DNA of 64,000 nucleotides from Lactifluus volemus (lineage: Eukaryota > Basidiomycota > Agaricomycetes > Russulales > Russulaceae). The notes beneath the pieces are model-generated. The model saw only the letters and a list, made by a program, of their open reading frames with translations, did no database searches and had not been told where the DNA came from. Location: positions 1,860,001 through 1,924,000 of the forward strand of contig WTXI01000001.1 in the NCBI GenBank assembly GCA_022376515.1. Reading direction: 5' to 3'. The translations under genes and the position numbers were made by a program. This document shows positions 1,390 through 43,711 of this stretch, in pieces (within the stretch, counting starts at the first letter, position 1; the number at the start of each line of letters is the position of its first letter).

Positions 1390-1553
1390 TATATGGGTGG
1401 TGTTACCGATCGGAAGTGCCTTTCGGGTTGAGCTCAAGAATGGGAACGCTGTACTGTAGTGTAGAAAACATTTATATATCTTGATAGACGCCCATGACTG
1501 AATGAAGCGCGTTCCTCCAGTTTTGAATCCGACGCGTGACACATACATCCACA

Positions 1554-2006: not shown

Positions 2007-2138
2007 CGTGCGTTGTCCCCTCTCCCCGTTGCTGTCGAAATCACTGACTTTGCATCCATATTAGCCCCCCCGATCCAAAATAAACCCCTGATAGATCTAC
2101 CACTTCATTATTCTCCGCTAAGCTATGTAGTATACTTT

Positions 2139-3646: not shown

Positions 3647-3746
3647 GTCGTCTGGATCACGGTCGACGGTCGACTTTGTGTGGAAATCAGCACCAAACTG
3701 ATTCTCGGTCCGGCTTTCCGGTTTTAGCACGACAAAGGCGATGGAC

Positions 3747-9764: not shown

Positions 9765-9909
9765 GGAGGGGAGATATTGGGAGTTGTCTTAGCAAGAGCA
9801 CAAATAGATCTATTTGGGACCCTGCTAATATCAAAAATGACAATTCAAACTCCGCATACTGCGCACTCGGGTTTACACGTGAATCGTAGCACTGCAATAC
9901 AGTACAAAG

Positions 9910-17945: not shown

Positions 17946-18723
17946 CGGAGGCCTTCAAGCGCCAGCCGAAGACAATGGTCAGGCCCAGCTTTTATAGTAA
18001 TGGACTTTCTAGCGGACACATAGTTGAGATCTAATATTTGTGCGTAGATGAAGTAGGATGGAACCACTGTCAATCTTTAGTAAGTTATCCAGAACAACAT
18101 GGCACCCCGTCTCGGATCACTCCAAACTTCTCGTCCACTTCTCGCTCAATTACCACAAAATTAGTCTACAGTATCAAGCACCATGTGTTACCATATTTAT
18201 ATATATATTGTAGGAATCGTAGCGTGTGGTGAAATAAAAGTACTGTACTGACGAAAGTAAGTTTGGTGGATCCACAGATGAAGTGCCTGACCGCATGACC
18301 CGTGCCCAGATGGCTTTAAACGGATTTGGAAACAGAGACTTGATTACTAACCCCCCATCCTGCCACTCCGTTTTTCTCGCTCAATTCTCACTCAACCATC
18401 ACAAAAATTAGCCTACAGTATCTAGGACCATATGTGACCATATTCCACACATCCTTTTGATAGAAATTGTGGTGTGTAGTGAAATGAAAAATAGCATGTT
18501 TGTCACGCTTGCTTTAATGTCGGAGTTTACAATGTTACAAAAATGGTAAGCAGAAATCACACCAAATGGAGTCTGAAATTTGGCGAGTGACTGGCGGAAC
18601 GGGGCGGTGGCTGGAGAGAACGTCAAATGCAACGTTGTGCTAATGCCAGTGAAAAACGATGCAAATCTTAGTCTCGCCTTATAATTTGGCCGGTCGCGCG
18701 TGCGACCCCCTTGCCCACTCACG
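17946..18723. other. Spacer between copy A genes
   Basis: No gene. The first ~150 bp match the copy B spacer; the middle does not; the last ~60 bp before the acyltransferase match again. It contains an imperfect direct repeat described separately. Confidence 0.6.
18127..18490. repeat. Imperfect direct repeat of about 110 bp, two units
   Basis: Units at about 18127-18238 and 18378-18490 share TCGCTCAAT, CACAAAA, TTAG-CTACAGTATC, ACCATATGTG-like and GTGGTGAAAT-like blocks in the same order and orientation, about 250 bp apart. They lie inside the part of the spacer absent from copy B, so they may be the ends of an inserted or replaced sequence. No open frame lies between them. Confidence 0.6.
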
Positions 18724-20743: not shown

Positions 20744-21607
20744 TCAGGAATGTGTTCACGGTATTCAGATCGAGCGCATAGATATTCGTAGTGAGTAAAA
20801 ATGACATCAGCCTTCGACAAATAAGGCTTGGGGTCGGGTCGATCATGCTCTCCAAAAAAAAGGGGTGCAATGAAGGCCACATAAGACAAACGGGGTGTGA
20901 CCAAGGCAGGGATCAAACTCAAGAGGGGACGACTATGGACAAATTTGGGATTATAAGTCAGAGGTAACGTTTTCACCTCTAGTTAGAAATTACGGACTTA
21001 TCTTTACCCGTTCGGCTGCTCACCAAGAGGTACCCCCGCACACACTTACAGTCCCACCTATTATGCAGATCTTGCAGCTTCGGGTGTCATGGAGCAATAC
21101 ATGTGGATTGGTGAAGGCTTCTTACTCGACCGACTACACACTGCGGAATTCTTTTGAGGAATATCAGCACGTTCCACCAACAAATGTGACCTCAAATTTG
21201 AGCCAATAGTTCAGTAGTTCACAGATGTACTGGATAGTGAATGGGGTATGGAGATATATGTAACCTGAACTGCTGTCACTTGCACTGTGCACGCATGCGA
21301 ATCACCTTGTTTTGGATAGGGCTGGGCCGTCGTTGCTGTCCCAAGTCGCTACACCACCGTTGCGGCACCTACCGCTGCCACCGTAGCCATGAACTTGGGT
21401 CCCTCTGGCCTCAAACTCTATCACGCGTGGGAGTCTATTTTTTTATTTAAAAAATCTGCATTTGTATCCCGCAACGTGTAGCCAAGACAAAGACACGGCC
21501 CCTGGTGAGCGGGATAACAAAGGTAGCCGGGGAGTGCGGGAGGGTAGCGTAACGCTGGATGGGTTCGTGGCTTGGGGGAGGGATGGTGTTGTGCTGTTTA
21601 ACTCGTG
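20744..21607. other. Spacer between duplicated segments, left half
   Basis: No gene supported. Short open frames on both strands lack family signatures. The right part of the spacer, from about 21608, holds a LINE remnant. Confidence 0.45.
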
Positions 21608-22209
21608 CTATATACTAGTTGGAGGGGAATTATTCTGCCTATATCTGATGGGCGGTTGACCTGGGCCCCAGATTTGTCTTGGGAGCATGCAGGCGCAGAT
21701 CAACTTGATAAAGAGGATCATGGCTTCCCCACCTTGGGCTGTGCTGAAGAGGGTGGAGAGCGAGTACTCACAGTCAACTGGGAGGAGGAATTCAGGCTTC
21801 GGTGTAGAGAGGGCAGGTGAACACGACATGTTCGACGGTCTACATGAAGGCACCGCACAGGCAGTTCGTGGGTAGGTCAGGTCAGATTTTTTGGGTGTAA
21901 GCGCCGATAAGGGCGTGAGGCGAATAGGGTGGCGAAGACCGCTCGGTTGCAGCCTTTGGTCGCTTGGATGACTGGTAGGATTCTTCCTGTGGGCGGAGCG
22001 GGGAGGGCGACGTATGTTTGGGAGGGGTGGTCGTTGTTTCGCCAGCGGGTGTCCCACGTGTTGATGGTAGCCGATCTTGTCACACGACGCTGGAAGCTGA
22101 TGGTGTGGGGTTCGTGGTGGTTGGGCGGGAGGGGGCGTGTGAGGTGTTGGGCTCTTGTAAAACGTACGAGACAGCAGTAGGTGATTTGAATTTTCAGGAT
22201 CCTGTTCAA
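21608..22209 (-). mobile_element. Non-LTR retrotransposon (LINE) remnant, 3' end of ORF2
   Basis: On the minus strand, pieces in more than one frame read W-D-T-R-W-R-N-N-D-H-P-S-Q-T-Y, A-V-F-A-T-L-F and C-L-C-G-A-F followed by T-V-E-H-V-V-F-T-C-P-L-Y. This is the Cys/His-rich end typical of fungal LINE reverse-transcriptase/RNase H proteins. Internal stops and frame changes show it is dead. No complete reverse transcriptase domain, poly(A) end or target duplication was identified, so the ends are approximate. Confidence 0.65.
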
Positions 22210-22642
22210 AGAGAGGAGAATGTCAGCAGTCTGCCTGAAGGATAGTGAGAAGGATTGGCCCGTGTGAGCCTAGTTTGAGTATGGCTAGGACCCTATGGGT
22301 AGGGCTGCTCATAAGCGTCTCTGGCCCTGGCCCTAGAAGACGGAGGAGGGTCTTCCATAGTTGAAGTTGAAGGACAATTTATTTTTTCATAGAACCGAAG
22401 CAATAAAAAGGGGCGTTGCAGTAACTGTCACGGTTGATTCATTCGGAAGTAGATCTGAGATCTGACCCAGCCGCGCATCTTACAATCGCCATCTAGATCA
22501 GGTCTGTCACGCCCCCCGGTTGACCCCTTCAAAACGTCGACTTATTCGGTTTGATGCCTTATTGGTCCCCTGTCCACTTTCCCCCTCGAGGCGATCAATC
22601 CCTTCCTCTTTACTTCCCCTCTTGACCAACTTTTCACGAATC

Positions 22643-24034
22643 ATGGACGACAGATACCCCTCGTCATTGCGTATCGCGGCCGTTGTATCATTCTATATGT
22701 TTGCCGCCCTTGTGGTATGTCATCTCCGCTTTTCCCTTACTCCTGCACGCGCTCATTTCCTTAGATGGTTTTCGTGTACGCCCTTTCCTAGACTTGTCCC
22801 CTCTAGTTCCTTACTTCCATTCCCATCAAAAGCAACAAGACTGTTCTCAATGCCTCGCCTGATGTCCCTCTTCTATTCTTATTCCTTCAACTCATCATTG
22901 CAGTCATCCTTCTTCATGTCGCAGCTCTATTCTCCTCTAGAATAGAGATTCCACGCTGGGACTATCACACTATGAAGAAGCTCTTCCCAGTTGTCTCAAT
23001 CAACATCGTCGGACTCGTCTTTAATATGTTCTGTCTCAGAGAAGTCGAGGCCACATTTTTCCAGGTATTAATAAGCTTCCGTGTCATCCGCGTTGCTGGG
23101 CTCAACCATCACTCCCCGCCAGATCGCAAGAGGCTTAGTCTTGCCTCTCACCATCTCTGTCGCTTCCTTGACATCTCACTCACATCCGACGATTCGTGTC
23201 ATTGTCGCAGCCGCCACTGTCACGATGGGATTCTTCATTGGCGTCGCACCGGAAGGCAGCCTTCCTGTATCTTCCATTCCGTCTACCATCAGTTTATTCT
23301 ATGGTGTATTTTCCTCACTTTGCATCGCTGTTCATTCTGTCTTGGTCAAGTCCTCTCTGACTTACTGCAACAACTCAACGATCCAACTCGCATATTGGAC
23401 AAATGCAGGTTCTGCCCTCCTCCTCTCCCCATTTGTCCTCCTTCTCGGAGAACCTGCCAAGTTGTTGGAATTGGTATCCAGTTCCGAGTCGAATATGAAT
23501 GCCTTCTTCTGGGGTACTCTCGTGACAGGTTTCTTTGGATTTTTGCTCTGCGTTGCGGGCTTGCTTAGCATAAAGGTGACAAGCCCCGTCACACACATGT
23601 TCTCAAGCGTATGTCCTGTTCACTTTATTTGCCACTATCACTATTCAAACATTTTGCCGTACCAGGCTGCTCGTTCCGTAATACAAACACTCCTGGGCGT
23701 TTGGTTATTTCACGATGTCTTGACAATGTAAGGCACTCACTTCATCGTGGTCTACTCCTCTCACACTATCATACATATTACAGTAACCGTGTGACGTCTC
23801 TATTGACAATACTTGGCGGTACCATGTAGGTTTTTCCTTGCAAGCAATCGTCGGGTGTCGGGGTGTGTTAATGCCTGTTCTAGGTATTACACGTGGGTCA
23901 AGACTACGGAACAAGCACAGCAATCTGCACGGCCCATTGATCTTGAGGCCCTCCGTCGAGATGGAGATGACAAGGAGGTGGAAGAGGCGGGCGTGGTCAG
24001 TGAGGTGCGAGAGAAGGCGCCGGATTCGGAATGA
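22643..24034 (+). CDS. GDP-fucose transporter-like protein (SLC35C1 / TPT family)
   Basis: Golgi nucleotide-sugar transporter with about ten hydrophobic helices. Exon 1 (22643-22714) splices to an 11-nt exon (22765-22775), then to exon 3 at 22833, giving M-V-F-V-N-K-T-V-L-N-A, the first conserved motif. Later exons give F-C-L-R-E-V-E-A-T-F-F-Q-I-A-R-G, G-F-F-I-G-V, A-Y-W-T-N-A-G-S-A, V-T-S-P-V-T-H-M-F-S-S and Y-Y-T-W-V-K, which line up with human SLC35C1 landmarks such as T-S-P-L-T-H and A-Y-T-W-V. All exon joins keep frame to the stop at 24034. The apparent stop near 22789 falls in an intron. GDP-fucose specificity is inferred from family resemblance and the neighbouring fucosyltransferase-like gene. 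Confidence 0.8.
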
Positions 24035-24824
24035 CGGGGAGCTGGGAACGACGGCTGGCGTGTTTGACGGAGGCGTTCAAGCCCCAACGGTTTGGCCCAG
24101 CTTTTACAGTAATGAACTTTCTAGCGGACACCTAGTTGAGATCTAACATCTGTGCGTAGATTAAATAGGATGGAACTTCTATCAATCTTTAGCTCCTGAG
24201 AACAACAAGTACTATGTAAGTTACGCGACGTTTGTAGATTTGGTATTATCCAGAGTTAAAGTGCCTGATCGGTGCGCACACAAGACAGGAAGACCGTTTA
24301 GAAATTGCCAAAATGGTTTTCACGGAGCTGGTTTCATAAATGCTGTAAATAGAGAGGCCCGCAACACTGCGTCAAAGCTTGCTCGAGAGATCGATCGAGA
24401 CCCAGTATCCGGCACGGTGATCCTTGCCCGCGTGAGGGATTCCGTCATCATCACACTTTGCAACGGGATGTGACCGTTATGTGACTAATGTTGAACTTGG
24501 ACCCACTTCGACAATACGTGGCGTGTCCGATATGTCCTGCGATATATTTACCCGGGGTACATCGCATCGGCAAAACGGACATTAGGTGGGGTTCAAGAGC
24601 ACAAAATATGCAAGAACCCCAATGGGAGGAGAAGATGCAATGCAAACCATGTCTCATGACATGGGGAATAAACCCAATAAAGGCTCATATGGTATAGCGC
24701 AAAAGGGGTAGTTGAATTTGATTCCCGGTAGGCAGTTCAGCAAAACAATGCAAATGATCTTAGTTTCGCCTTAAAATCCTTGTGAATTGGCCGACCGCGC
24801 ATGCGACCCCCTTGCCCACTCACG
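24035..24824. other. Spacer between copy B genes
   Basis: No gene. The first ~150 bp and the last ~75 bp match the copy A spacer; about 24190-24748 is unique to copy B. Short open frames here show no family signature. Confidence 0.5.
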
Positions 24825-26855
24825 ATGACATCCCTCGCTGTTAACTCTTTAACATCGGCGACCGCAACCCTTCCTACTCCAAATGTGTCCGACGAGGAAG
24901 TTTTAGTCTCAAACTCCCAGCAGCTGACCATGTCGGACGTCCGTCAGCAGGGCCCAATATCCTATGAACGCCAGCTAGGAGACAATGAGCTCTCCTATTA
25001 TCTACCTAGCCGAGCGATAGGAGTCAACGACATGTTCGTTTGCATTCCCCACTTGTGGACGGTCAAGTTGGCTTATCCATTCCACGATAGGTATCTCCAC
25101 CTGGGATTCAAGGCCCCCAAAAGTCGTATACTCCGACGCAGAGTGCGCGCCGTATGGGCCATATTACGAATGCGACACCCGTTGTTGGCCTCCAAGGTTG
25201 TGATGCGGAGTTATGAGGATGTCAGATTTGTGTATGTGCTCCCTTCTCAGGTTTAGGAGGTCCGCCGATCCGATGATGTGCCATCCTTTGTTTGTGTAGT
25301 TTTCATCCGCCGTCATCCGCCGAAGATGCCCTTGCGGAGGCCGATGGCGTGCTCGATTTCAGAAGCCAAAGCAAGGACGGTACGTGTGGAGGCCGTGACC
25401 TTGGCGCGGTGTGATTTTGTCTCATCCCAACGCGCCCATAGACCTCCTCGAGTGGTACCTCAATGGCCCGCGGACTTTGTCCAATGAGAGACTGTCTTAC
25501 CTTGTCGTCTCCCACACTCCTACACCAGATGACCAATTACCCACACCACCTTCTACGCCTTCGAATTCCGCAGATCCGCTAGTCGGCCTGACTGAACAGG
25601 CTACCGACTCGGACGACGGTGACCGCGTGGTCGACTTTGAATTATTCATCTGCGCTGCCCACTTTATCGGCGATGGAATGGCACTTCACCAATTTGCCAA
25701 CGACTTCTTTGGCCTGTTGGGTAGCGCCGGCTCACCAGAAGAACTGGAACAAAATGTTGCCGACGAATGGAAGCAACGCTGGGCCCATCCTATCCCATCA
25801 GATGTGCAGCTTTTATCACAACGTTTGTCAGACTTATTAACTGACCTATGGGCGTTAGACCCCTGCCCTTCCCCTGAGCTCAGATGAGAAGTTGGGAATT
25901 GAAAAACATCGATTCCGTCGCGCTGCTGGGCAGATTGATTTCCAAAATTTCTTACGCAAGCAAATTGTGAGCTTTCGCACATGCATCACGGTTGCCTTGT
26001 TTTGACCACAGTGTCAGGGTGGGCAAGCCTTTCCACGGAGATGTGACCCTGTTCGCCATACAATCGTTCCGACGACGTCCTTCAAGGAGGACCTCACGAA
26101 GGTCATGCTCAAGAAGTGCAAGGCTCAAGGAGTCTCCATATCGAGTGCATTGTTTGCTGTTTGCAATATAGCCTATGCAAGGATGACCTCTCGGGAGAAG
26201 CAGGAGCTGCCAATGTGGGTCGTTGAGGGTTCCTGGGGGATCATGTACTGATCCTTTTTTTAGGATGATGTACGCGCCTATCAATATCCGATCGTACTTC
26301 CCAAAGGCTGCTCAGGATTCGTACTGGTTCCTTGCTGTGGGCTATTTCAATGTCGTTCTCCCGAATTTCATGCCAACCTCGAGCGATGTGTCCGAGACGT
26401 TCTGGCACCGCGCTCGTAAAGCCAAGGAGCAGAGCTCTCGAGTCGCAAGCAGCCCGCTGATCAAGTCGCGCATCCGGGCAATGGCGATTATGCGTGGGAA
26501 GCAGTCTCGCTTGTGGGCAAAAGAAGATGATGAAAAGGCAGCTGGCACATGGGTACCGCCCCCGCCGACGACTGACGAATCATCTGCTCCCAAGCATCCA
26601 TCGCAGGCGCTCACCGGCCTTTCGCTACTCGGGAATTTGGATGGTATCTATAAACATGCGAACTTCCCGGATATCAAACTTCACACATTGACGACTGGTT
26701 CTCGTCAGCGTCATAGTGGAATGCTGATATTCGGATACACATTCGCGGGGAAATTATGGATCAGCTTCGGATATGACGAGAATGGGTTCGATCGAGAGAC
26801 GATAGATTTGTTCTGGGGGAATGTGCACGCAGCTGTTCACGAATTTTTGACCTAG
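24825..26855 (+). CDS. CoA-dependent acyltransferase-like protein (condensation / alcohol acetyltransferase superfamily)
   Basis: Predicted acyl transferase of the chloramphenicol-acetyltransferase-like fold. The H-F-I-G-D-G motif at 25660-25677 fits the catalytic H-x-x-x-D-G. Exons: M-T-S-L-A-V start, S-Y-Y-L-P-S-R-A, R-H-P-L-L-A-S-K; an intron from the GTATGT donor after D-V-R-F; L-L-E-W-Y-L-N-G-P; another intron with GTGCAG donor after I-P-S-D; A-L-F-A-V-C-N-I-A-Y; and finally A-P-I-N-I-R-S-Y-F-P and F-G-Y-T-F-A-G-K-L-W. The TAG at 25254-25256 lies inside an intron. An upstream in-frame ATG at 24801 exists but copy A lacks it. Substrate unknown; such genes often act in secondary metabolism, but no synthase is nearby. 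Confidence 0.72.
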
Positions 26856-27035
26856 TCACACTTTGGACATTACTATACTATGTATACCCTTCTTTATCAA
26901 TTGTGACGTGACGTGAACGTGACTATTTGTGGTGTGGGCAGTCAAGTTTCCCGCAAAAGGCGACAAGGGTGCTCTCAAACCTTGCCAAAAATGATATCGA
27001 CCTTTTCGAGCAAAACGGGCATCACGGCAACCAAC

Positions 27036-29057
27036 ATGGCTTACCGCCCTCCTCTAATTACCACAACTCATACTATCACTTCAAATCCACCAGTTCCTCG
27101 TCCCGCTCCAAATACCACTGACGATTACGAACGTTAGTGAACTGCTTGGCTCCCCCCCGTCTTTTCATCCAATGCTCACTCCAATTTGGTATCCTCAGGA
27201 TGGTATACCGAGGCATCACCCAACAACCGGATGCTTCTATCCCTCCGCTCAGGTATACCCTCAGAGATAGCCTGGGCATTTGATCGTCTCTGTCGTCTCT
27301 GCAACAACGAACAATTCCTCTTCCGTTCCATTCCTGGTTTAACCAACACCCTCTTCGAATGGCCCGAATGGTACATCTCACAAAATGCGGCGGGTTCGTT
27401 CAAGTTTGCCTCGCTTTTCGCGATGGCACCCTTGGAGGAACGCAAACGTCGTCACGGGCTAGAGGCCCTTTGCATCATGCGCAACGCGGCAGCCGTCAAT
27501 GACGCCAATGCGGAAGAACTGATCCATCACAACAAGGTGATACCCTTGATCCTTTCAGCTCTGCACAACGTTCAGCCTAATTCCGACGAAAATGTGGAGT
27601 TTCTGCTCTATGTGATCGACCTCTTTCAATACATGGCCCCCACTTATGCCCTACCCCCGACCTCTGCACCACAAAAGTCCTCTCCTCTCCCCCCACTGTT
27701 AGAACTGATCCGTCGTACCTCGAACCGCTCGCTCATTGTTTCATCTCTCACCTGTCTTCACCTCTTGTTCTCCAACCCCATCAACTCGTCCCGCCTGAGT
27801 GCAAACTCTCCGGCTCTTTCTGCCGCACTGCTCTATCTTCCTTTGCTTTCAGATAGAGCCCTCGTGGATGTCTGTATCAATTATCTCTACGCTCACCTTT
27901 CCCACCCTCCGATGGCGAAAGCATTTCTTCTTCGTTCTGATATGCCGAGCACGCTGAAGCTTCTTGTTACTCAAATGTTGTCAGAACAAATCGAAGAAAC
28001 GGTAACCATCGATATTGGGGGACCCATCCATACCGCACCTGCTCAAGCTATTCTCATCAAAGACCACGATCTTACCAAAGAGGAGTTGGACGGGCTTATT
28101 GCGTTGCCCGAACCCCAGCGCTGCTATGAATGGTTTGTCAAACAACAATGTCGTCAGGCCTTTTGACGTTTATCATCTTGTAGGATGAAGCTGATGTTCG
28201 TGGCTAAACCCGAAGGCGAACTAACTCAGGTTGACTTTTGGAATTTGTACAAAGACGTCTTCGTTCCTTATCAAGATCAGTACCATTTACTGGTCGCTTC
28301 TGACGTGATTAAGAACGTCAACGTCGTCTTTCCCCAAGCACAAGCCATGGTCCTCCCTGGGCCGCCACAGAAATTTGTTGTCCGTGGTGTAGACCGCAGA
28401 AAAGATGATCATTCGAACGAGCGTTTCAGGTGTCAATGGAATCGTTCAGAGTGCAGCTCGTCGCCATTTGGTTCTGCCAGCGAATTATATGAGCACGTTC
28501 TAGAACACATTTCTTCACTCGAGGAAGACGGCCAGAGTTGTTTATGGGCAACATGTTCGCGCGAACCCTTACCAAGGTTCAACCTACGCGCACATGTCCT
28601 CACGCACCTCCCGAGCGCGCAGCCACCAGCTAAACATCCAACGCAGAGTGACACGATTACCCTTCCGTCAGCTCAACACCCTCATCCCGTCCCGAACCCT
28701 ACGACAAGACCATTACCTCCGCATAAGACAACCCTATCAGTAAAAAAGCCAGTGGTCGATCCGCCATCAAGTTCCTTGACCGCGTTGCTCTGCATCCGCA
28801 TCCTCTTCCGCACCGCATTTACATCTGTCGAAGCTGCACCTCGAGTTGATGCGGATCACTTTGGCTTTCCGGGCGTTATTGAGGAAGATGAAGAAATGGA
28901 TGTGTTGGAAGACAACGGTCTCTCTGATTCGGAACAGGAGGGACAACGAAGAGGCAGGAGGGCATTCCGTGGGGTGCGGAAATTGTTGGAGGGTGTACAG
29001 ATCCGGGATGAGACTTTGATGGGTTGGATTACAGAGATGATCCAGGCGGCTAGCTAG
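27036..29057 (+). CDS. RSC9-like (ARID2-type) chromatin remodelling subunit
   Basis: Candidate subunit of the RSC/SWI-SNF nucleosome remodeller. Exon 1 (M-A-Y-R-P-P-L) splices to a helical repeat region from W-Y-T-E-A-S, including F-D-R-L-C-R-L-C-N-N-E-Q-F, R-R-H-G-L-E-A-L-C-I-M-R-N, and H-L-L-F-S-N-P. The next exon carries an RFX-like block (L-T-Q-V-D-F-W-N-L-Y-K-D-V-F-V-P-Y) and a C2H2-type zinc finger (C-Q-W then H-V-L-E-H). The join from Y-E-W-F to L-M-F-V-A-K skips the TGA near 28164 with an intron starting GTCAAA. The tail has an acidic patch. It lies 106 bp upstream of the ARMH3 gene on the same strand. Confidence 0.82.
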
Positions 29058-32674: not shown

Positions 32675-35600
32675 ATGAGCCAAGCCGCTGCACAACATGC
32701 CACGGCACAACAACCCCCGGACGTCGACCAAAATGCAGACGATGACAACGCTGTCGCCGGCCCTGCTGGCTCCGTCCACGGTTCTTTTCATGGCTCCGCT
32801 GCTGACTCCGCTCATGCACGATCCCCTCTGACTTCGGCTGCGAACACACCAGCTCGTTCGCAATCCCCTCCTGACGTGATCTGTCCGCTGCATTACCCGG
32901 AACCGATCCCACGACTTCCACCAATGCATCCATTTGCAGGAATGCCGTTCGCACGTCAGCAGGCCGCGATTCCACCGGCACCTCAGCAGGCTCCGATCCT
33001 ACCAGCTCGTCCACCACCTGCAATAGCCGCCCCAACGGTCATCTCGCAACGGTACGACATCCCTCCGCTCGAGCAAGATGGCAGCAACTTCTCAGTGTGG
33101 CGTTTTCATATGCACGTCGTCCTCAGGAGCTACAAACTCCTTACTGTGCTTAATGACCCACGCCCTAACGCTTTCCTTTACCCTGCCGAGTCCGCCGCGT
33201 GGGATGAGAAGGACCAACAAGCCTTCTCCCTCATCGCGTTATCGCTCACTGGAGAGCCCGCACACCTCATTTTCCATGCCCAGACGGCGAAAGACTGTCT
33301 CGACTGTCTCTCAGCGCGTTTCGAAGGCCGAGGAGGACATAAAATCTCCCAACTTATGAACAGGCTTTTCAGCACGCCTCTCAATGACACCGAGCCCCTC
33401 GAGCCCCAGATCAACGCCATGATCGACGCATCTCATCGCCTCGCCGAAGCCGGATCCCCCTTCACCGACCAACAGATCGCTCACGCCATCACCAACACCC
33501 TCCCTGCGTCTCACAGGATGCTCAAGATTGTTCTCAATAACCTAAGCCCTCTCGATCAAACGGCTGAGAACATCAAGCTACGCATCCTTACGGACGAGGA
33601 TTCACGCATTCGTGAATCCGGAGACGGAGCGGCCGCCTTCTATGCTAAGGCCGCCAAAAAGGGCAAGGACGGCAAAAAGAAGTCGGAGAAGAAGGATTCC
33701 GATAAGGATAAGGGGAAAGGCAATTGGAACAAGCGCAAAGACCAACAAAAGAAACGTTGCACCCATTGCAACTACACGGGTCATGACATCAGTGAGTGCC
33801 GAAAACTCAAGGCGCAGAAGGAAAAGGAAGCGAAGGCAGCGACTACGACACCTGCAACGGCGTCCGCCCCCCCTTCCACTTCGACCTCTGCGCCCGCCTC
33901 CGCAAAAGTGGCGGTGGCTCCATCACACGACGAGGAAATCTTTCTTTATCAAGCTCGCCCGTCGCACTCCTCTTCCCCCCTTCTTGAATCCTGGATCCTC
34001 GATTCAGGGGCGTCCCGTACGATGTCTTGCAATCGCTCGTGGTTCACCCATTTCTCTCCCCTCTCCGTCCCCATCAAGGTTACACTTGGAGATGCTCGCT
34101 CCATCTTAGCCACGGGTGTCGGACGTATTCGTGTCCGCATGCACGCCGACGACCAATGGAGAACGGCAATCCTCCAGGAGGTCCTTTTCGTCCCTGATTT
34201 ACACGGAAATTTACTCTCCGTGTCTTATCTCACGCAACACGGCGCAAGCCTTCTCTTCAGTGACAGCTCTTGCCTACTTCGGGACAAGTCAGGTATTACC
34301 ACCTGCCATGGTCACATGTCATCGAACCTCTATATTATGGACATCAAGACCATTGTCCCGGAGAGAGTCCAGATCGCTAACGTCACCCCTTTCCCGCGTG
34401 ATGACGAGAATCCCCCCGCGCCTGACCAAATTGCCCTCCTCAGTGAGGACGCTGGCTCTAAAGCCTCCCTCACCACCTGGCACCGTCGACTCGGACATGT
34501 CAGCACCGATACCATCGTTCGGATGGCTGAAAAGGGGATAGTAGATGGGATTACCATTGATGGTCCTACGAGCGCAAGCATCATTTGCCAACCGTGTCTT
34601 AACGGGAAGCAAACACGCACCGACATATCAAAGGTGACCAGCACGCGTGCCACCGACGTTCTTGGCCGTGTATTCTCGGACATTTGCGGCAAACTCCCGA
34701 CGCGCTCTCGTCAAGGTTTCGAGTATTTTGCGACCTTTACTGACGACAAAACTCGGATGGTGTCTGTTGCCGGACTGAAACTCAAGTCCGAACTCCTCCA
34801 GCACCTGAAGACTTACGTTGCGTGAGCCGAACAAGAGACGGGAAAGCAGCTCAAAGTACTGCGTTCAGACGGAGGTGGCGAGTACACTGGAACAATACCA
34901 ACTCGTTATTTCGAGGAGAAGGGAATCTGTCAGGAGGTAACGACCGCCTACACGTCTGAGCACAACGGTGTTGCGGAACGCATGAACCGCACACTGCTCA
35001 ATAAGGTGCGGACTATGCTTAATGATGCCTCCCTCCCCGATTCTTTCTGGTACGATGCTCTCGAGTACGCCGCGATTCTCCACAACCATCTGCCGACGCG
35101 TTCGCTCCCTGGCATCACACCTGAAGAGGCCTGGAGCGGCAACAAACCGAACGCAACCTGTCTGCGCGTTTTTGGCTGCAAAGCCCACATGCACGTTCCC
35201 AAGAAGCATCGATCGAAACTTGCATCCCGATCTTATCAATGCACTTTCCTTGGGCTCGCTGCAAATTACAAAGCATTCAAACTTATCCACCGTCCCTCCA
35301 ACAAAGTTTACAATTCACGCGACGTCATTTTTGATGAAGGGGGTGCTGTACATGAACGTATCATAATCAACGACGAAGACGATCGCGACGATACGGTTGA
35401 CGATGCCGGAGACACTCCAGAAGCGACTGCGCCGCCGCGCGCACCTCCTGCACCTGAAACGCCTGATCGTCCGAAGCGCACCATCCGCGCGCCTGTTCGC
35501 GACGATGATGACCGCTACAATGTGAGCTCATACGACCGCAAGCACCCCGCGCGCGTCACTGTCGCCGACGCCGAACTTGGAAGTGATCCACGCACTTTCG

Positions 35601-36851
35601 ACAAGGCTATGGCACGACCTGACGCAGCCGAGTGGATTTTGGCCTGCGAGAACGAGCGACATGCCTTCGAACAAATGGGCGTTTTCGAAATCGTCCCACG
35701 TCCGCGCGATCGCAAGATCGTTGGCAGTCGATGGGTTTTCCGCGTTAAGCGCGGCCCAGACGGTAGCGTTCAAAAGTACAAAGCACGAATCGTTGCCCAG
35801 GGTTTCACGCAGACCGAAGGGGTCGATTACGACGAGACTTTCGCGCCAGTCGCGAAATTCGCCTCTTTCTGCGTCATACTCGCGATGGCTGCCGAGCGAA
35901 ACCTAGAAGTGCACCAGATGGACGTGAAGTCAGCTTATCTCAACGGAGATTTAAAAGAGGAGATCTTTATGCATCCCCCCCCTGGTTTTGGAGCGCCGAG
36001 CGGCACAGTTTTACGATTACTGAAAGCCGTCTACGGAACCAAACAAGGTGGACGCGTCTGGTATGAGAATATCAGATCGCGATTATTCTCCATGGGATAT
36101 GCTAACACACAAGCCGACCATGCCGTCTTCACTCGTTTTGCTGACCCCGATCTCTCCATCATCGCCCTCTATGTGGATGACATCACCATGGTCTCCACCA
36201 ACCTCGCTGACATCGAACGAGACAAGGCCCTCCTCGGACAGCACTACGAGATGACCGACCTAGGTGAACTCACCTGGATACTTGGAATGCACGTCACTCG
36301 TGACCGCACCGCAGGGTGGATCTCTCTATCACAGGAGAAGTACACCTGTGAAGTCCTTGAACGTTTTGGGAAGTCCACAGTGCGCCCTATCACTACTCCT
36401 GCCCTCGCCAACGAGCACCTTCGTAAGCTCTCCGAACCCGAAGGCGATCCGAAGCCTTACCAAAGTGCCGTGGGTGCTCTCATGTATCCGATGCTGGGTA
36501 CGCGCCCCGATTTGGCTTACGCTGTCGGTGCTCTCGGACGTCATAACGCCACCCCTGGCTCCACACATTTCCAGTCTCTGGACCGGGTCTTCAAGTATCT
36601 TCGCGGCTCCTCTGCCCTCCGCCTCGTCTTCAGGCGCGGTGTTCCTGAGGGCACCACCTTACGCGGCTATGTTGACGCCGACTGGGCCAGCGATATCAAC
36701 GATAGAAAGTCGACCTCTGGTTTCGTGTTTATGCTCGCTGGGGCCGCTGTTAGCTGGGGATCGAAGAAGCAATCATCCGTAGCCCTGTCTAGCATGGAGG
36801 CCAAGTATATCGCAGTCGCTTATGCGACCAAGGAGGCCATCTGGTTACGAC
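32675..36851 (+). pseudogene. Copia Gag-Pol polyprotein, 5' part (in-frame stop; 3' end severed by hAT)
   Basis: Gag with a UBN2-like core and CCHC knuckle (C-T-H-C-x4-H-x4-C near 33758-33800), protease D-S-G-A near 34004, GAG-pre-integrase motif W-H-R-R-L-G-H with C-Q-P-C, integrase core (S-D-G-G-G-E-Y, then S-E-H-N-G-V-A-E-R), reverse transcriptase with Y-V-D-D near 36172, and the first part of RNase H (D-W-A-S-D, S-S-M-E-A-K-Y-I-A-V-A-Y). The frame is the same throughout except for one TGA at 34823-34825 inside the integrase core. At 36852 the hAT begins and the frame runs into a stop at 36874. Apart from these two lesions the reading frame looks clean. Confidence 0.93.
36844..36851. repeat. 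Target site duplication of hAT, left
   Basis: GTTACGAC, matching 43704-43711 exactly; part of the Copia RNase H coding sequence. Confidence 0.95.
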
Positions 36852-36866
36852 TAGTGTTGCGGCGGC
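36852..36866. repeat. hAT terminal inverted repeat, left
   Basis: TAGTGTTGCGGCGGC, exact inverse complement of 43689-43703. Confidence 0.95.
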
Positions 36867-37035
36867 CCGCGTAGCCGCGCCGAGCCGGTAGTCAAGCCGA
36901 TTTTAGCCGCGCCGTTTCCTTATTAGCCAAGCCGCGCCGATGGACACATGTCATCAAGCCGAGCCGAGCAGAGCCGATCAAATAGCCGGCTATTCTCCGG
37001 CTAGGATGCAGCTCGGCTCCCAAGCCAGCTCGAGG
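36867..37035. promoter_or_regulatory. hAT left subterminal repeat cluster
   Basis: Many copies of AGCCG and GCCGAGCCG, several in inverted pairs such as AGCCGGCTATTCTCCGGCT. Subterminal pentamer clusters in hAT elements are usually transposase binding sites; here this is inferred from position and repetition, matched by a similar cluster at the right end. Confidence 0.7.
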
Positions 37036-37167
37036 TCATGTCATCGAAAAATTTACACCCAGTGACCAAACTACAGGTCTACAACAATATATTCACCGAC
37101 GCGTTACGAGTCTTTGCCTACATGTACCTCAAAAGCTTAAACCCAACTACGAAAACAGTAAATAATG

Positions 37168-38343
37168 CTACATCTTCAAGTTGTGCCTTCTTGTACGAGT
37201 GGCACGAGCGGGTGTTTGACGTATGTACCGAGACGATTCATCAACCGTGCAAGTCGAAGAGCGAAGCCTAAAATAGTCTAGTTAGCGTCAGTAATTTCAC
37301 ACAGGGTGAGACTACTTACACCGGACTGGTGAAGATAGGTTCAGGGTCTACGGACTCTACGCTGACCTGGGGACACAAGTACAAGGGTGGCGCTTTGATG
37401 GGTTGATTAGCCTCGGCTTCTGAGCACTGTAAGAGGATGGAATGAAGGTACTGATAATCCGGTTTCTGGTCAAAGCCAAGAGAACGGACACAGGTGACGA
37501 ATTTGCAGAAAGGAGCGGGTAAGCCTTCGCACAGCTCTTCCGCTGTGATTGATGTTTTCTTTCGGAGGATTGCCTCCTCGTTGCCCACAGCATTGCTAGT
37601 CCAAGGCAAATTGCCGAGTGCCGAATAAATGATCGTATAGGCGAGTGACTCCAGGTCATCGCGACGCGACTGGGCATAGCCTTGCTGACCGTTGATAGAT
37701 ACGAATGGAAGAGTACCAACGATTGAATGATCCGTTGTAAAAGGGAAATGCAAATAGGTTGCAGGATTTCGGAATAACCGTGCCAAGCCGAAATCAATGA
37801 GGAAGACGGTAGGATGAAGGTCATCAATGCGAATCATGAAATTCCCGGGTTTGATGTCACGATGGACATAGTGTTGGCTATGAAGTGACTCGACTGCCGA
37901 GAGCTGTACACGAGGCTGTATTTAGTACGATCGTCTGTTTCATATATCAAGCGTACCATTAGGGTGGCATACGAGAATGTCTTTCCATGGTCAAACTTGG
38001 GCTGATTGATCAGGTCACCCAGTGAAGTTCCAAGATAGTCCAGGACAATAACTTCATATACACCTTCTTTGCCGTACCAGAGTACTCGAGAGATTCCTCT
38101 GCTACCAGCGATCGTTGTATAGACGTTGTATTCATGGTTGAGTCTTGAAGGCAAGCTGCATCGGTGCCCTATCTTCAAAGCAACGTCAGACCCCGTCATA
38201 ATGTCTTTTCCTAGATAGACACTCCCTAACGAGCTTAGCAAAGTGTCTCAAATTCTCAAATTTGAGTTGAGCTTACCTGATCCCCCAGTACCGAGTAATT
38301 TGCCTACTCTGTACCGGCCACCAACACGCACAATATCTGACAT
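37168..38343 (-). CDS. Casein kinase 1-like protein kinase carried in the hAT element
   Basis: Ser/Thr kinase of the CK1 type. The start at 38343 gives M-S-D-I-V-R-V-G-G-R-Y-R-V-G-K-L-L-G-T-G, the CK1 glycine loop region. Further exons give V-A-L-K-I (ATP-binding Lys), V-L-D-Y-L-G-T-S-L-G-D-L, H-Y-V-H-R-D-I-K-P-G-N-F (catalytic loop near 37835-37870), L-I-D-F-G-L-A-R (metal-binding Asp) and S-I-N-G-Q-Q-G-Y-A-Q-S-R-R-D-D-L-E-S-L, the CK1 counterpart of the APE region. The last join uses a GTAAGT donor after S-P-V to a basic final exon ending at 37168. All key residues are present. It lies between the left TIR and the transposase on the transposase strand, so it is element cargo. An earlier in-frame start is possible. 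Confidence 0.85.
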
Positions 38344-38594
38344 TGGGTGAGGGAGTCGCTTCTCAAAGGTCTGTCGTGGATATCGAAGGCGCATAATGGT
38401 CATCAATGCTAACAGAGAAATGGGGTGTAAAGTCAACGTATTTTGCGACTATTGTATGCGTCGGTTGAACTCGAACCACGAACTCCGATCCCAAATAAGC
38501 ACCAACAAATGGCGCCATATGACAGAAACGTGGCCAGTAAACTTTGTTTTCATTGTATAGTGGACGTAAAATAAAAGCTAGTCAAGACTCGTGA

Positions 38595-41500
38595 TCAATC
38601 GTAGATACTAAGGCTCTTCAACAAAGCGTCCAAACGGTCCGATGCAGAATCAGGATCATCCATGAAGAGAGAGCCAAGGTCGCCAGTTGCATTCGACACC
38701 CCACTCATGGCAGCTACTGACGTCGACCACCCTTTCATGAAGTTGAGGCGTTCTTTCTTGAGCAAGTATTTCAGCATTTGTAGGGCCTCCATGAGAACTG
38801 GGCTGATTCGGTTTCGCTTCGCGGTGTCTGTATCCTTCGCTGATGAGAACACGCGCTCACAAGGTACAGATGTTGCCTGGATCGGGAGGTAATCCATGGC
38901 GATTGAGAAAAGCGTTGGGAATTCCGTCCTATTAGCCTGTTCAGGGAGTGAGCTGCGCAAAGCACAATTCAATCATGTCTCACCTCCCAGAACCGCAGGA
39001 TGTTGGTCTCCTTAGACGAGATAGAAGAAGTATACCTCTGGAATTCAGCCTCTACCGTGCAGTCATTATGTGTGGATTTTTTGTTATATACGGAATTTTT
39101 AACCCTAAATCGTGTTGGAATCGGATTGGCCACAGAGACCGGGGCAGGTACGGCAGGTCGGGCAGGGGGGCCATCGGACGTTGATGATTTCTTGTCACGG
39201 TACCGGCGCATCTGCAAGTCATGAGAAAGAACTGATCTGAAAGGTGGTGTAGTCTTACGAGCTTTATAATGATACCTTTCGCTTCCCGAATATAGTCATT
39301 ACCCCATTCCTCTTGGATCCAGGTGAAGCGCGTAGCAGGATCGAGGACTGTAGAATCAAGTCGGAGGTTAGAGAAACGCCACAACAAGACATCGATTCAA
39401 AGACTCACACATCGTGATGACATAAGCGTCTGTATCATCCATTCGAATATAGTATTTCTTCGCCCATCGCAGGCCGATTTCCGTCCAGGGCCGGAGTTTG
39501 TCCCATTGTGTCCCAATGTTTTCCCACTCGGTCATAAACTCCTCGAAACTGGAGATTGCATGCGACAAAATTGGTGTGGATTCGGACGACATGCTTTGTT
39601 GAAATGTGTGAGGAACCTGTTGTTACATGAGCGCCTGTCTATGTATTAAGTCGACGACGACTCACACTCAAGACCGATTCTAACCCTTCAAGAACTTCCC
39701 AATCGTTGTTGGACAGTTTCCAATGAGAGAAGTCATGCAACTCGTTCGCAAAAAACTTATCGATAGCCTGTAAGAAAATTATTTAGTCCCCACTGTACTG
39801 TCTGGTCGCTGAGACGAACTTACCGGCCGGAGAGCTCTAAGACGTTGCAGCATCAAATAAACCGAGTCCCACCTTGTCTTCACATCCCTCAGAAGATGTA
39901 CCTCGGGAACTGTGACCTTAACAGATTTGCTCTTCTCAACATTTACGGTGAACCAGCCTCGTTCATTTCCGGCTCGGATGTGCTCGCGAAAGGCAGTCTT
40001 GCGTGTGTCCGAAGAGCGTAATAGACGAATAACTCTGCGAGCACGCTTGAGGGGATCGCGTTTGATATCTGCAAACCAACGTTCGAGCCTAGAATCGCCA
40101 TGGGCATCGTATTGACCCTCCAGTTGCAACTCGGTAATATCTTCACTACTGTCAATGTCGTCGTCGTCATAGTCGTCGTCGTCGTCGTCATCAGCGGAAG
40201 TCATGTGGACTGTACCAACAGGAACTTTAAGACCGGAGAGATACTGTTCGGAAACAGAAGTCATGGATGAAATGATGTGAGATGCGCAAATGTTAATGAT
40301 GTGTGCGTAACACCGGACGCGGTGTTGAAGGTGATCGAAGTCGATTTCGATGGCCGTCTCACGTTTGGCGAGCAGAGACTCCAGCTCTTGCATGGCTACG
40401 GCGTTGTTCTCGGCGTTGTCGAGTGTAAAGTAGCCAATCTACAAAGAGTAAGGCACAAGCGAATAGTTATCACATGAATACGGACCTTGAGTGTAACATC
40501 AGCCCGATCAAGTAGGTATAGGATAGTCTTCGCTATATTGAGACCTGTGTGTTTCTTCTTGAGGCGATGAAAACCAATAAGCGCAGCATTAAGTGCGAGG
40601 CGTCCACTTGACTCGTCACATGAGATCCAGTGAGCAGTCAACGCCAAGTAGGATTCTAAATTCGCGTTTGACCAGATATCTGAAGTAAAACTGATCCGCC
40701 CACAGGATTTCGAAAGGTCTGATTTCAACTCTCGAAACTTATCCCGCCATTGACTAATGACCGCTTCCCTCATCTTGTCGCGGCGAGGGATATCAGCGTC
40801 GACAAGAGCCCGGCAAAGAACCATACACAACTTTCGAAACTCAGGGCATTCTACAACACGGATCGACTGAGGACTTGTGAGTATGAAAGAACACGAGACC
40901 ATTGGGACTCACCTGGTCATCTGCAACTATGAAGCGAACGAGATGCTCTAGAAATACCGCCGGTGAGAATGATGGGACATCCGGGTCGCGTTGGTTGCGA
41001 TCATTTTGGGTGGATGCATCGCGCGTTTGGGTCGATAACAAGTATGGCCAGTTATACCGCGAAATTGCTTCATCGTACTCTTTACCGTGTACATTGCGGA
41101 GATGATTTCGGAGATTCGTGTTCCCGGTTTTTATCGCGTAGACACCATGGGGCTTACCAGAGCCAGATATCTCACTGATGTCGTAAGAACGCAGAATGAA
41201 TACCAGAAAGCCAATACATACGAGCACAGCTTGCAGACTCTAGAGGGAGGCACATCTTCATCCGAAGAAGGAGGGGGTTTGACGACAGTGAAGAAATGCA
41301 AAATATCGAGCGCTGCCTTCGTGTTAGCTGGCACATCAAGGGCGTCAACTTGTTGGGAACTTGTGCTCCGAGTCTCTCGCTCAGGCGAGGGATTGGGAGG
41401 ACCAGAGTCGGACGTCTCGTCAACGTCCTCTATCCCTTGTAAGCTGAATTCTTCGCCACTACCTGCATCGGGTTGGGTGGTAGCTGCCTAGATCAACTGG

Positions 41501-41671
41501 TAAGTCTCAAGACTCAAAGAGCGAAAAAGGGACCAGGAGAGTTGCCTTTGATCGGGTCCGGGACGAGCCAATGGGACGTGCATTTGTGCGACGAGAAGTT
41601 TTGGCTTTGGATTGTTCCACAGCTGCGGGTGCAGCTGGTTCAATGGGCTGCTTTGCCTTGCCTGGAGCCAT
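38595..41671 (-). CDS. hAT transposase (BED zinc finger, RNase H-like core, dimerisation domain)
   Basis: Cut-and-paste transposase read in many exons from M-A-P-G-K-A-K-Q at 41671. A BED-type finger follows (R-V-C-K-L-C, then T-N-L-R-N-H-L-R-N-V-H). The RNase H-like core shows first Asp in I-S-F-T-S-D-I-W-S, second Asp in Y-F-T-L-D-N-A-E-N-N and the catalytic Glu in S-V-P-C-E-R-V-F-S-S-A-K. An insertion holds a poly-Asp tract encoded by a GTC/GTCGTC-rich run near 40150. The C-terminal hAT dimerisation domain runs F-P-T-L-F-S-I-A-M-D-Y-L-P through L-M-E-A-L-Q-M-L-K-Y, ending S-I-Y-D-stop. No defect was seen, so it may be active. Confidence 0.9.
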
Positions 41672-42187
41672 GGCACAAAGAGACGGTGAGTGAAAAAAAA
41701 AAAGTGAAATGGGAATCGAGAGAGTGGGGGATTTGGGCGGCCTTAAATCCCGGTGATTTGAGCTTTGCACCTGGGCAACGCACTCCACAAAAATGACTAA
41801 AAAAAAGACAAACTGAATTACGTCCATGATATTGACGTCAAATGTGGTCCATCGGCAAGCATTGGGCGAGCCGCGAGCGTCTCGAAGCGAAAATGTGGTG
41901 ATGTGTACTTGTAGCCTTGGCGCGGAATCCTGAGTGCCTGGGGGATGAGATGGGCAGTGAAGACCTTGGGAAGTGAGGAACTTCAGAGGAAGTGGGATAG
42001 GTGGTGAAAGGCGGGGCGACTGGCGAGCAGCAAGCGAGCGGGGCCATGCCGCCTGGACCACGTGCACATACCATGAGGTCGGCCGAACCGTTTATCAATT
42101 TCACCGAATATAGAACAAGGATATCATAAGGACAGGTAGCGCAACCAAACGCAATCAAATTTCAATACAGGATGCAACATAGAACCG
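41672..42187. other. hAT internal region upstream of transposase
   Basis: About 500 bp between the transposase start and the Q-rich fragment; presumably contains the transposase promoter. The open frame through it on the minus strand is only the 5' extension of transposase exon 1 and has no family signature. Confidence 0.4.
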
Positions 42188-42698
42188 CTAGAGTAGGTCA
42201 CAAAACACGCCAACTGATTGAATATGTTGGTAAGGTGCGAGTAATGGCACATCAGCTATATTGTTTAAACTAAGCATCTGTTGTCCCCCTTGAGGGGGGG
42301 CTTGCGATGGTGGAGCCGAGGACTGGAGACCTGCGGAGGGAGCGGAAGGGTTGGGTTGAACAACGAGGTTTTGTTGTAGTGAGCCATCCTTGAGAAAGTC
42401 CCAATCCAGGGGGTGAAAGTTTTGACCCACCCGAGCGGAGAAGCTGGCGCTGCCATTTGGCGGTTGCTGACTGTGTGAGGAGATTGTTCAAGGGACGAAA
42501 ACTTGGATGATCCTGTGCCTGAACGACGCGTTGGAGGATATTCATCTGATTATTGACCATTGGCTGGGCATGCTGCTGCGAGAGCGCAGACATTTGTTGC
42601 TATGTAGGGCCACCTGCCATCCCACCAGAGGTGAAAGTTGGCAGTATATGTTGAGGAACAGCCTGTTCTTGAAATGGGAGGGCTGCAGAGGCCTGCAT
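42188..42698 (-). pseudogene. Q-rich gene fragment carried in the hAT element
   Basis: From 42698 the minus strand reads M-Q-A-S-A-A-L-P-F-Q-E-Q, then after a TAG Q-Q-M-S-A-L-S-Q-Q-H-A-Q-P-M-V, then in another frame S-Q-Q-P-P-N-G-S-A-S-F and G-Q-Q-M-L-S-L-N-N-I-A-D-V-P-L. Glutamine- and proline-rich text ending L-S-L-N-N-I-A-D resembles low-complexity parts of fungal chromatin proteins such as SWI1, but this is a weak resemblance. The internal stop and frame change suggest a captured, decayed host fragment. Confidence 0.45.
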
Positions 42699-43544
42699 GA
42701 TAGTGAAACGCTCGAGGTTGGTCCAGGAGTGGTCCTGGAACAAGAGGGACCAAGGAAGCCACTGAACCACTGGATGACGGAGTGGGAAGAGTTTGAGGTG
42801 ACAAGGCAACACACTCCCCCTACATAGGACATTGGCAGGGAGGCTTAGATGCGCCGCCTCAGCCCGCTCGCGGTCATGGAGAGAGTGGCGTGAGGACCGT
42901 GATCGGGACCGGGACGGGGGTCAGTTCCAGGATGAAAGGGATTGACATCCACCCATGCCTAGGAGAGAATCGCCGCCTCCGCGAGCGGCGTGGAGTGAGT
43001 GTGATCGTGCACCTTGGGATAGACGGTCGCCCTCTCGGTCTCGGTCGGGTTCCCCAACAGCACGCAGAAAAAGTTGGAGGATGGGCCCTAAGACGGCATC
43101 TGTGGTAACCCCCCATGACTGGTATATATCGCTCCATGTCGTTATAAAATCAGAACCTGAAATTATTTGTTAGGGGGGGAACGTAGGGAATCACGGGGGG
43201 GAGGGGCATACCATTGCCAATCATCCAGTATCGCGTGCATGGCATCATTGGTGGTGCGAGGGCAGGCAGTTTCCATGGATGGTTGAGTGGGAATGGCGCT
43301 GTCACGATGGTCGGAAGTGTTGGACGCGACACAAAAATGAACGGGAAGGGGGGTGCAACAGGAGCTCTACCTAAGATAGCAGGACGGCTTGTCGATGCTA
43401 TCCGAGATGGAGGATGTGCGGAGAAGGAAAAGACTTGACACAGTTGCAAGGAAAGAAGACGGGGGGTGCATGACCGTGTCAAGAGGAAAGGGGAGCGGTA
43501 GGGAGAGTCCAACGCAGACAAGAGGAAGGTGGCGGGGGTTTGCG
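42699..43544. other. hAT internal region, right side
   Basis: No complete gene. Minus-strand open frames with Pro, Arg and Ser-rich text (for example around 42874-43137 and 43150-43521) may be further captured fragments, but none is recognisable. Confidence 0.35.
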
Positions 43545-43688
43545 TCAGCTAGCTGGCTCTAGCTGGTCTAGCTGGCAAAAAGCCGGCTTGTCCCGAGTCG
43601 GCTAAAGGGGGTGGCTATGCAACAGTGGCTCGGCTCGGCTAGCATTTTAGCCGGCTACGGCTCCGGCTATAGCCGCGTTTTAGCTGGA
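43545..43688. promoter_or_regulatory. hAT right subterminal repeat cluster
   Basis: Repeated CTAGCTGG units at 43548-43575, then AGCCGGCT, GTCGGCT, GGCTCGGCTCGGCT and CCGGCTACGGCTCCGGCT. It mirrors the AGCCG-rich left cluster in inverted sense. Confidence 0.7.
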
Positions 43689-43703
43689 GCCGCCGCAACA
43701 CTA
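43689..43703. repeat. hAT terminal inverted repeat, right
   Basis: GCCGCCGCAACACTA, exact inverse complement of 36852-36866. Confidence 0.95.
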
Positions 43704-43711
43704 GTTACGAC
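43704..43711. repeat. Target site duplication of hAT, right
   Basis: GTTACGAC, equal to 36844-36851. Confidence 0.95.

What the first reader, a model, noticed from the sequence alone, without database searches (positions are those of the whole stretch)
37168..38343. Casein-kinase-1-like kinase gene carried inside an hAT transposon
The sequence shows a complete CK1-type kinase (ATP-binding Lys, H-R-D-I-K-P-G-N loop, D-F-G) between the left terminal inverted repeat and the transposase of a hAT element with exact target duplications. Non-transposase genes are unusual hAT cargo. If the kinase is a standing part of the element, it may modify the transposase or host factors; if it is a captured host gene, this is a gene-transduction vehicle.
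Basis: partly seen in the sequence, partly recalled or inferred. Interest (0 to 1): 0.86.

Follow-up and report, generated by a model that had tools for sequence, protein, structure and literature searches.

The report
Mushroom transposon with built-in kinase gene
A cut-and-paste jumping gene in a mushroom genome carries its own protein-kinase gene as a lasting part of the element, some relatives carry two different kinases around the transposase, and this may partly explain why mushrooms have so many unexplained kinases.

Summary
Window 36852-43703 is a complete 6852-bp hAT element (15-bp TIRs, exact 8-bp TSD GTTACGAC) inside a Copia-like gene. It encodes a spliced hAT transposase (876 aa) and, downstream on the same strand, an intact CK1-like kinase (311 aa, three exons, 38343-37316).

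It is not a one-off capture. A second complete copy with its own TSD (C89) and four partial copies keep the kinase. In this genome 27 of 28 related hAT C-termini have a same-strand CK1-like kinase within 2.5 kb downstream, against 0 of 75 other hAT C-termini. These fall into about four diverged subfamilies. Two of them (elements of 7.75 and 8.94 kb with their own TIRs) also carry a FunK1 kinase upstream: FunK1-transposase-CK1. Russula and Lactarius gene models show neighbouring kinase and hAT genes. The host's canonical CK1 is only 40% identical.

So the kinase is a standing accessory gene of a hAT lineage. Its job is inferred: most likely phosphorylating the transposase or a limiting host factor. 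Against a need for activity: one subfamily lost the catalytic Asp, 4 of 6 kinase copies in the window's family carry stops, and a single origin of all the element kinases is not shown. Ten paper searches listed no CK1 or FunK1 gene in a hAT element.

The parts
36844..36851 (.). left target-site duplication GTTACGAC
36852..36866 (+). left 15-bp terminal inverted repeat TAGTGTTGCGGCGGC
36867..37151 (.). left subterminal region with CGGCTA/TAGCCG repeats (5 in the terminal 300 bp; 0 in the middle of the element)
37316..37915 (-). CK1-like kinase exon 3 (HRDIKPGN, DFG), ends in the stop codon
37957..38225 (-). CK1-like kinase exon 2 (ATP-binding Lys in VALK)
38277..38343 (-). CK1-like kinase exon 1, ATG at 38343
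38595..38936 (-). hAT transposase last exon, Dimer_Tnp_hAT domain
38595..41671 (-). hAT transposase gene, ten-exon model, 876 aa; contains a CxxC...HxxxH stretch that looks like a BED zinc finger (motif recalled, not called by Pfam)
41672..43688 (.). region upstream of the transposase; no FunK1 remnant found and no third gene established; right subterminal CGGCTA/TAGCCG repeats at its end (6 in the terminal 300 bp)
43689..43703 (-). right 15-bp terminal inverted repeat
43704..43711 (.). right target-site duplication GTTACGAC

Best explanation
The CK1-like kinase is a standing accessory gene of a lineage of hAT transposons in Russulaceae-like mushrooms, and it works for the element. SHOWN: a TIR/TSD-bounded unit that holds both genes, the same pair in a second complete copy, the same order and orientation in about four diverged subfamilies, low identity to the host's CK1, and fewer amino-acid than synonymous changes between family members in most comparisons. 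INFERRED: the kinase is made together with the transposase and phosphorylates either the transposase or a host factor that limits transposition (silencing, repair, cell-cycle timing). Since a kinase acts in trans, copies with a broken kinase could be served by an intact one. In two subfamilies a second, FunK1-type kinase sits upstream of the transposase. My odds: standing gene of the element 0.93; works for the element by phosphorylation 0.6.
For: Second complete copy C89 with TSD AGCGGCAC and kinase; C20, C494, C244, C11 keep it. 27 of 28 clade hAT C-termini have a same-strand kinase 281-1668 bp downstream; 0 of 42 lower-scoring hits and 0 of 75 PF05699 hits outside the clade. Element B (FunK1-transposase-CK1, 7753 bp) and element D (8940 bp) bounded by their own TIRs. 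Gene models in Lactarius pseudohatsudake (hAT domain then kinase, P0071) and Russula decolorans (FunK1 then hAT, P0121, 139 member sequences). Window kinase has the catalytic residues. dN/dS 0.37 between the C145 and C125 kinases; between subfamilies dS is saturated with 44-56% of exon-3 residues kept. Host CK1 40.4% identical.
Against: Kinase stops in 4 of the 6 copies of the window family examined, one stop shared by C20 and C89, whose transposases show none: a copy with a dead kinase may have moved. dN/dS of the C244 kinase against the window is 1.10 on few changes. Subfamily D has HRH for HRD and subfamily B has Ser for Asn133. In the tree the C and D kinases sit on the host side of a 100/100 branch, and the C kinase is 49.0% identical to host CK1 but 38.0% to the window kinase, so separate captures are possible. 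The transposase C-terminus tree is unresolved. No expression or activity data.
Confidence: 0.6

Rival explanations
1. Long-lived passenger: the kinase is copied with the element but does nothing for transposition.
For: Stops in 4 of 6 kinase copies, one shared by two copies with open transposases; catalytic residues lost in subfamily D and Asn133 in B.
Against: Retention in about four diverged subfamilies at the same place; dN/dS below 1 between C145 and C125; intact catalytic residues in the window, R. emetica and L. hatsudake kinases. Decay also hits one of the transposases (C494, 1 stop).
Confidence: 0.2
2. Non-catalytic role: the kinase fold binds the transposase or a host CK1 substrate or regulator as a decoy or scaffold; catalysis matters only in some lineages.
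For: Subfamily D keeps the fold with HRH for HRD; subfamily B has Ser for Asn133; R178, G215 and K224, the CK1 phosphate-binding residues as I recall them, are changed in the window kinase and in C and D.
Against: The window kinase and its closest relatives keep Lys, HRD, Asn and DFG.
Confidence: 0.15
3. One-off capture of a host CK1 gene, with this copy as a gene-transduction vehicle.
For: The canonical host CK1 lies on the same contig, C1:1742801-1743810.
Against: Other copies and subfamilies carry it and identity to the host CK1 is 40.4%.
Confidence: 0.02
4. The kinase serves the host (a domesticated or adaptive gene spread by the element).
For: CK1-like kinases are numerous in Russulaceae proteins.
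Against: The copies of the window family differ by about 1-4% and mostly at CpG sites, and most kinases in them are broken, as for young repeats; no host gene freed from the element was shown.
Confidence: 0.03

Closest known systems
TET/JBP-encoding fungal DNA transposons, including hAT7 of Puccinia (PMC12730594: outline, passages and the first part of the discussion seen)
   Same: A standing enzyme gene beside the transposase, kept in order and orientation in several families; the author infers a role for the element
   Different: The enzyme is a dioxygenase, not a kinase; those hAT7 have 7-bp TSDs, here 8 bp; in Russulales that paper reports only Kyakuja elements with TET
IS3EU transposons with an alpha-kinase gene in rust fungi (PMC12730594, same sections)
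   Same: A DNA transposon that encodes a protein kinase beside the transposase; nearest precedent for the principle
   Different: Another transposon superfamily; alpha-kinase, an unrelated kinase class (recalled); transposase and kinase in opposite orientations, here the same
Histone H3-carrying hAT of Pseudocercospora and relatives (PMC6710886: abstract, outline and one results section seen)
   Same: hAT with TIRs and 8-bp TSDs amplifying a gene of host origin
   Different: Recent transduplication, copies inactivated by RIP, an original host gene still present; here an old and diverged gene
ToxhAT of Pyrenophora and others (PMC9594970: passages seen)
   Same: hAT element with a non-transposase gene
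   Different: Cargo is an effector gene that serves the host's interaction; no kinase
FunK1 kinase family (PMC3203195 and PMC3591445: passages seen)
   Same: The upstream kinase of subfamilies B and D matches PF17667 and is FunK1-type
   Different: The passages describe lineage-specific expansion, non-syntenic positions and unknown function; none of them links FunK1 to a transposon

Membership tests
hAT superfamily | 8-bp target-site duplication | tested here: met
   GTTACGAC in the window, AGCGGCAC in C89, GGCCTGCC in C379; the C145 copy lacks a matching pair
hAT superfamily | short terminal inverted repeats | tested here: met
   15-bp exact TIR
hAT superfamily | transposase with C-terminal dimerisation domain PF05699 | tested here: met
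   E 6.1e-14, 52 bits, cut-off 21.4
hAT superfamily | catalytic DDE triad in an RNase H-like fold | not tested
   likely first two Asp seen by eye in the model (TSDIW, TLDNAENN); no structure or alignment test
CK1 kinase group | best sequence match to CK1 among solved kinases | tested here: met
   the best 38 rows shown are CK1 isoforms, fungal CK1 homologues and Gilgamesh, before tau-tubulin kinases and VRKs
CK1 kinase group | catalytic Lys, Glu, HRD, Asn, DFG | tested here: met
   window kinase K, E, HRD, N, DFG at CK1-delta 38, 52, 126-128, 133, 149-151; not met in subfamily D (HRH)
canonical CK1 (primed-substrate type) | phosphate-binding residues R178, G215, K224 (role recalled) | tested here: not met
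   P, S and a gap in the window kinase; host C1:1742801 keeps R, G, K. So it is CK1-like, not filed as a canonical CK1
FunK1-bearing elements (subfamilies B, D) | FunK1 gene upstream of the transposase in the window element | tested here: not met
   tblastn of the C145 FunK1 against window 41600-43710 gave no hit at E 10; no PF17667 hit there
TET-bearing transposons | TET/JBP gene in the element | tested here: inconclusive
   Pfam scans of eight ORFs of the element and two spliced proteins showed none; no dedicated search was run

The most novel reading that the evidence does not exclude
hAT transposons of mushrooms have evolved kinase-transposase-kinase units whose kinases control transposition or disarm host silencing, and this traffic is a main source of the unexplained FunK1 and CK1-like kinase expansions of Agaricomycetes. 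In this genome 11 of 32 FunK1-type loci already lie upstream of a hAT of this clade.
Probability: 0.3. Interest if true: 0.87.

Novelty: new variant of a known kind. Interest (0 to 1): 0.72.

Why it matters
Eukaryotic cut-and-paste elements seldom keep enzyme genes other than the transposase (recalled general knowledge). A kinase kept by a hAT lineage, in two subfamilies beside a second kinase, suggests that transposition may be controlled by element-encoded phosphorylation, which can be tested directly. It also offers a concrete partial answer to why FunK1 kinases, whose function the passages read call unestablished, multiply and sit in non-syntenic places: some are transposon genes. Kinome counts of mushrooms would then need correction.

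Tried and rejected
One-off capture: rejected. Misassembly at this locus: made unlikely by the second complete copy on another contig; no reads were seen. A third gene at 41672-43688: not supported, since the gaps against the related C44 sequence are not multiples of three; not excluded. A FunK1 remnant in the window element: none at E 10. Co-descent of kinase and transposase by trees: not shown, because the transposase C-terminus tree was unresolved (1 of 6 inner branches well supported). Viral contigs scanned with the kinase: no relative. Sequences with the same TIR but no kinase (C112/C616, C44, C55, C212): no DNA match to the transposase or kinase coding regions in the stretches held, and one search lists no hAT C-terminus inside those stretches; C112/C616 is a 1204-bp non-autonomous element. 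C98, C65 and C390 match only at an end. C491 and C602 hold transposase pieces but no match to its C-terminus or the kinase in the stretches held. The C334:1425769 relic keeps a transposase C-terminal piece and only the start of the kinase. The script mis-oriented some loci and was replaced; the first script for the transposase model stopped with an error and was redone. No structure prediction was run.

Literature: ten searches listed no paper on CK1 or FunK1 genes in hAT elements; only open-licence papers are held. PMC6416283 passages mention Pkinase domains with Helitron remnants, not hAT.

Full report
What is there. The window holds a complete hAT element at 36852-43703 (6852 bp). Its ends are the exact 15-bp inverted repeat TAGTGTTGCGGCGGC, flanked by the exact 8-bp duplication GTTACGAC. 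It interrupts a Copia-like pol reading frame (named from the look of the ORFs; no family scan was run on it); with one duplication taken out the flanks read on in frame. CGGCTA and TAGCCG motifs number 5 in the left and 6 in the right terminal 300 bp and 0 in the middle.

Genes. On the minus strand a ten-exon model gives an 876-aa protein with Dimer_Tnp_hAT. Downstream of it on the same strand is a three-exon kinase gene of 311 aa, 38343-37316. Both models are mine, from GT-AG sites, without RNA evidence. The nearest solved relatives of the kinase are casein kinase I chains, E 6e-63. Catalytic residues are present; the residues aligned to R178, G215 and K224 of CK1 delta, its phosphate-binding site as I recall it, are not. 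Upstream of the transposase no FunK1 remnant was found, and gaps against the related C44 sequence are not multiples of three.

The host genome. 62.4 Mb in 628 contigs, unnamed. That it is a Russula or a near relative is inferred only from the kinase hits: the best named relatives are Russula emetica proteins (P0001, 78% identical, 80 member sequences), then R. brevipes and Lactarius species; 120 of 6148 hits were listed.

Copies of the same family. C89:42016-48865 is a second complete copy (98.96%) with its own TSD AGCGGCAC and the kinase. C20, C494 and C244 are partial and keep kinase and transposase parts; C11 keeps the kinase with an interruption; C65, C390 and C98 match at one end only. 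Two transposase-bearing pieces lack a whole kinase: C334:1425769-1426298 has only its start, and C491/C602 hold transposase pieces without its C-terminus or the kinase. Of 254 variable sites among eight copies, 212 are of CpG type, which fits cytosine methylation and recent spread. Kinase stops: none in the window copy and C244, one each in C20, C89, C494 and C11, so 4 of 6 are broken. C20 and C89 share one stop while their transposases show none. dN/dS of the kinase against the window is 0 (C20, three synonymous changes), 0.40 (C89), 0.17 (C494), 1.10 (C244) and 0.31 (C11).

The association is wide. A search with the transposase C-terminus of a second family (C145) gave 71 hits; one row, C344:17176-17349, the second piece of a listed copy, was left out, leaving 70. 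Kinase hits merged to 57 loci, weak ones included. With a cut at 98 bits, set after seeing the list, 27 of 28 hits have a same-strand kinase 281-1668 bp downstream; the exception, C11:61038, has one 8.7 kb downstream (coordinates). Below the cut it is 0 of 42, and of 103 PF05699 hits the 75 outside the clade have none within 2.5 kb on either side. The 28 are not independent: by similarity they fall into A (window family, 5), B (C145 and others, 11), C (6) and D (6), and some may be alleles, since C112 and C616 are one insertion seen in two contigs.

A second kinase. A PF17667 search gave 102 rows; after removing CK1 loci and merging, 32 FunK1-type loci remain. Of these, 11 of 32 lie 3.6-4.4 kb upstream of a clade hAT C-terminus on the same strand, and 11 of 28 clade members have one: 8 of 11 in B, 3 of 6 in D, 0 of 5 in A, 0 of 6 in C. 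Comparing C145 with C379 bounds element B: 7753 bp (one search printed 7754, with one flank base), ends TAGTGTTGCGG, TSD GGCCTGCC at C379 and no matching pair at C145, order FunK1, transposase, CK1. Two D copies on C596 bound element D: 8940 bp at 1551-10490, ends TAGTGTTGCCGC. In Russula decolorans a 1589-aa model (P0121, 139 member sequences) holds FunK1 at 186-484 and the hAT domain at 1424-1499; in Lactarius pseudohatsudake a 413-aa model (P0071) holds the hAT domain and then the CK1-like kinase. These may be merged gene models; they still show that the genes are neighbours.

Descent and constraint. The canonical host CK1 at C1:1742801-1743810 is 77.5% identical to human CK1 delta and 40.4% to the window kinase. 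In a 17-row tree the window kinase groups with Russula and Lactarius kinases (six rows, 100/100), so the gene is likely older than the split of these genera. The four host or outgroup rows lie on one side of a branch (86/91, 88% of 200 bootstrap trees), which allows one origin of all element kinases; but the C and D kinases sit nearer the host group, across a 100/100 branch from A, B and E, and C is 49.0% identical to host CK1 against 38.0% to the window kinase. One capture followed by descent, and repeated capture at the same place, both remain open; the transposase tree does not decide. dN/dS between the C145 and C125 kinases is 0.37 (hAT C-terminus 0.21); between subfamilies dS is saturated while 44-56% of exon-3 residues remain. 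Against a constant need for catalysis, D has HRH for HRD and B has Ser for Asn133.

How it works. I hold it most likely (0.6) that the kinase is an accessory factor acting in trans for the element by phosphorylating the transposase or a host factor; which one is open. That it is a standing gene of the element I hold at 0.93. A passenger (0.2) and a non-catalytic decoy or scaffold (0.15) are the serious rivals.

Against what is known. [quoted passage not shown] Histone H3 in hAT elements (PMC6710886) and ToxhAT (PMC9594970) are other cargo cases. FunK1 expansion is described without a known function and, in the passages read, without a link to transposons (PMC3203195, PMC3591445). Ten searches of the paper library listed no CK1 or FunK1 gene in a hAT element. 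I therefore call this a new variant of a known kind: accessory-gene hAT elements, here with one or two protein kinases.

Noticed in passing
G000 C596:1551-10490 and 18704-27645: Two inverted D elements have exchanged flanks: one has GTAACGGT left and AGTATGGG right, the other AGTATGGG left and GTAACGGT right. This fits an inversion by recombination between two copies that each had an 8-bp duplication.
   Followed up: partly
G000 C24, C268, C122: FunK1-type genes occur as inverted pairs about 7-8 kb apart on three contigs, perhaps another repeated or mobile unit.
   Followed up: no
G000 C112:204860-206063 and C616:100537-101740: A 1204-bp non-autonomous element with the same TIRs and TSD CAACAACC; both contigs show the same flank, so the assembly holds both haplotypes in places.
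   Followed up: partly
window 36852-43703 against C89, C20, C494, C244, C11, C65, C390: Copies differ mostly by C/T and G/A changes at CpG (212 of 254 variable sites), as expected from methylated repeats.
   Followed up: partly
window 32675-36851 and from 43712 on: The Copia-like element that hosts the insertion reads as two ORFs, with a stop at 34825 before the hAT insertion point.
   Followed up: no
L054, G000 C334:1536102-1537048: A second, divergent host CK1-like gene (58.3% identical to the canonical one) that has lost the residues aligned to R178, G215 and K224.
   Followed up: no
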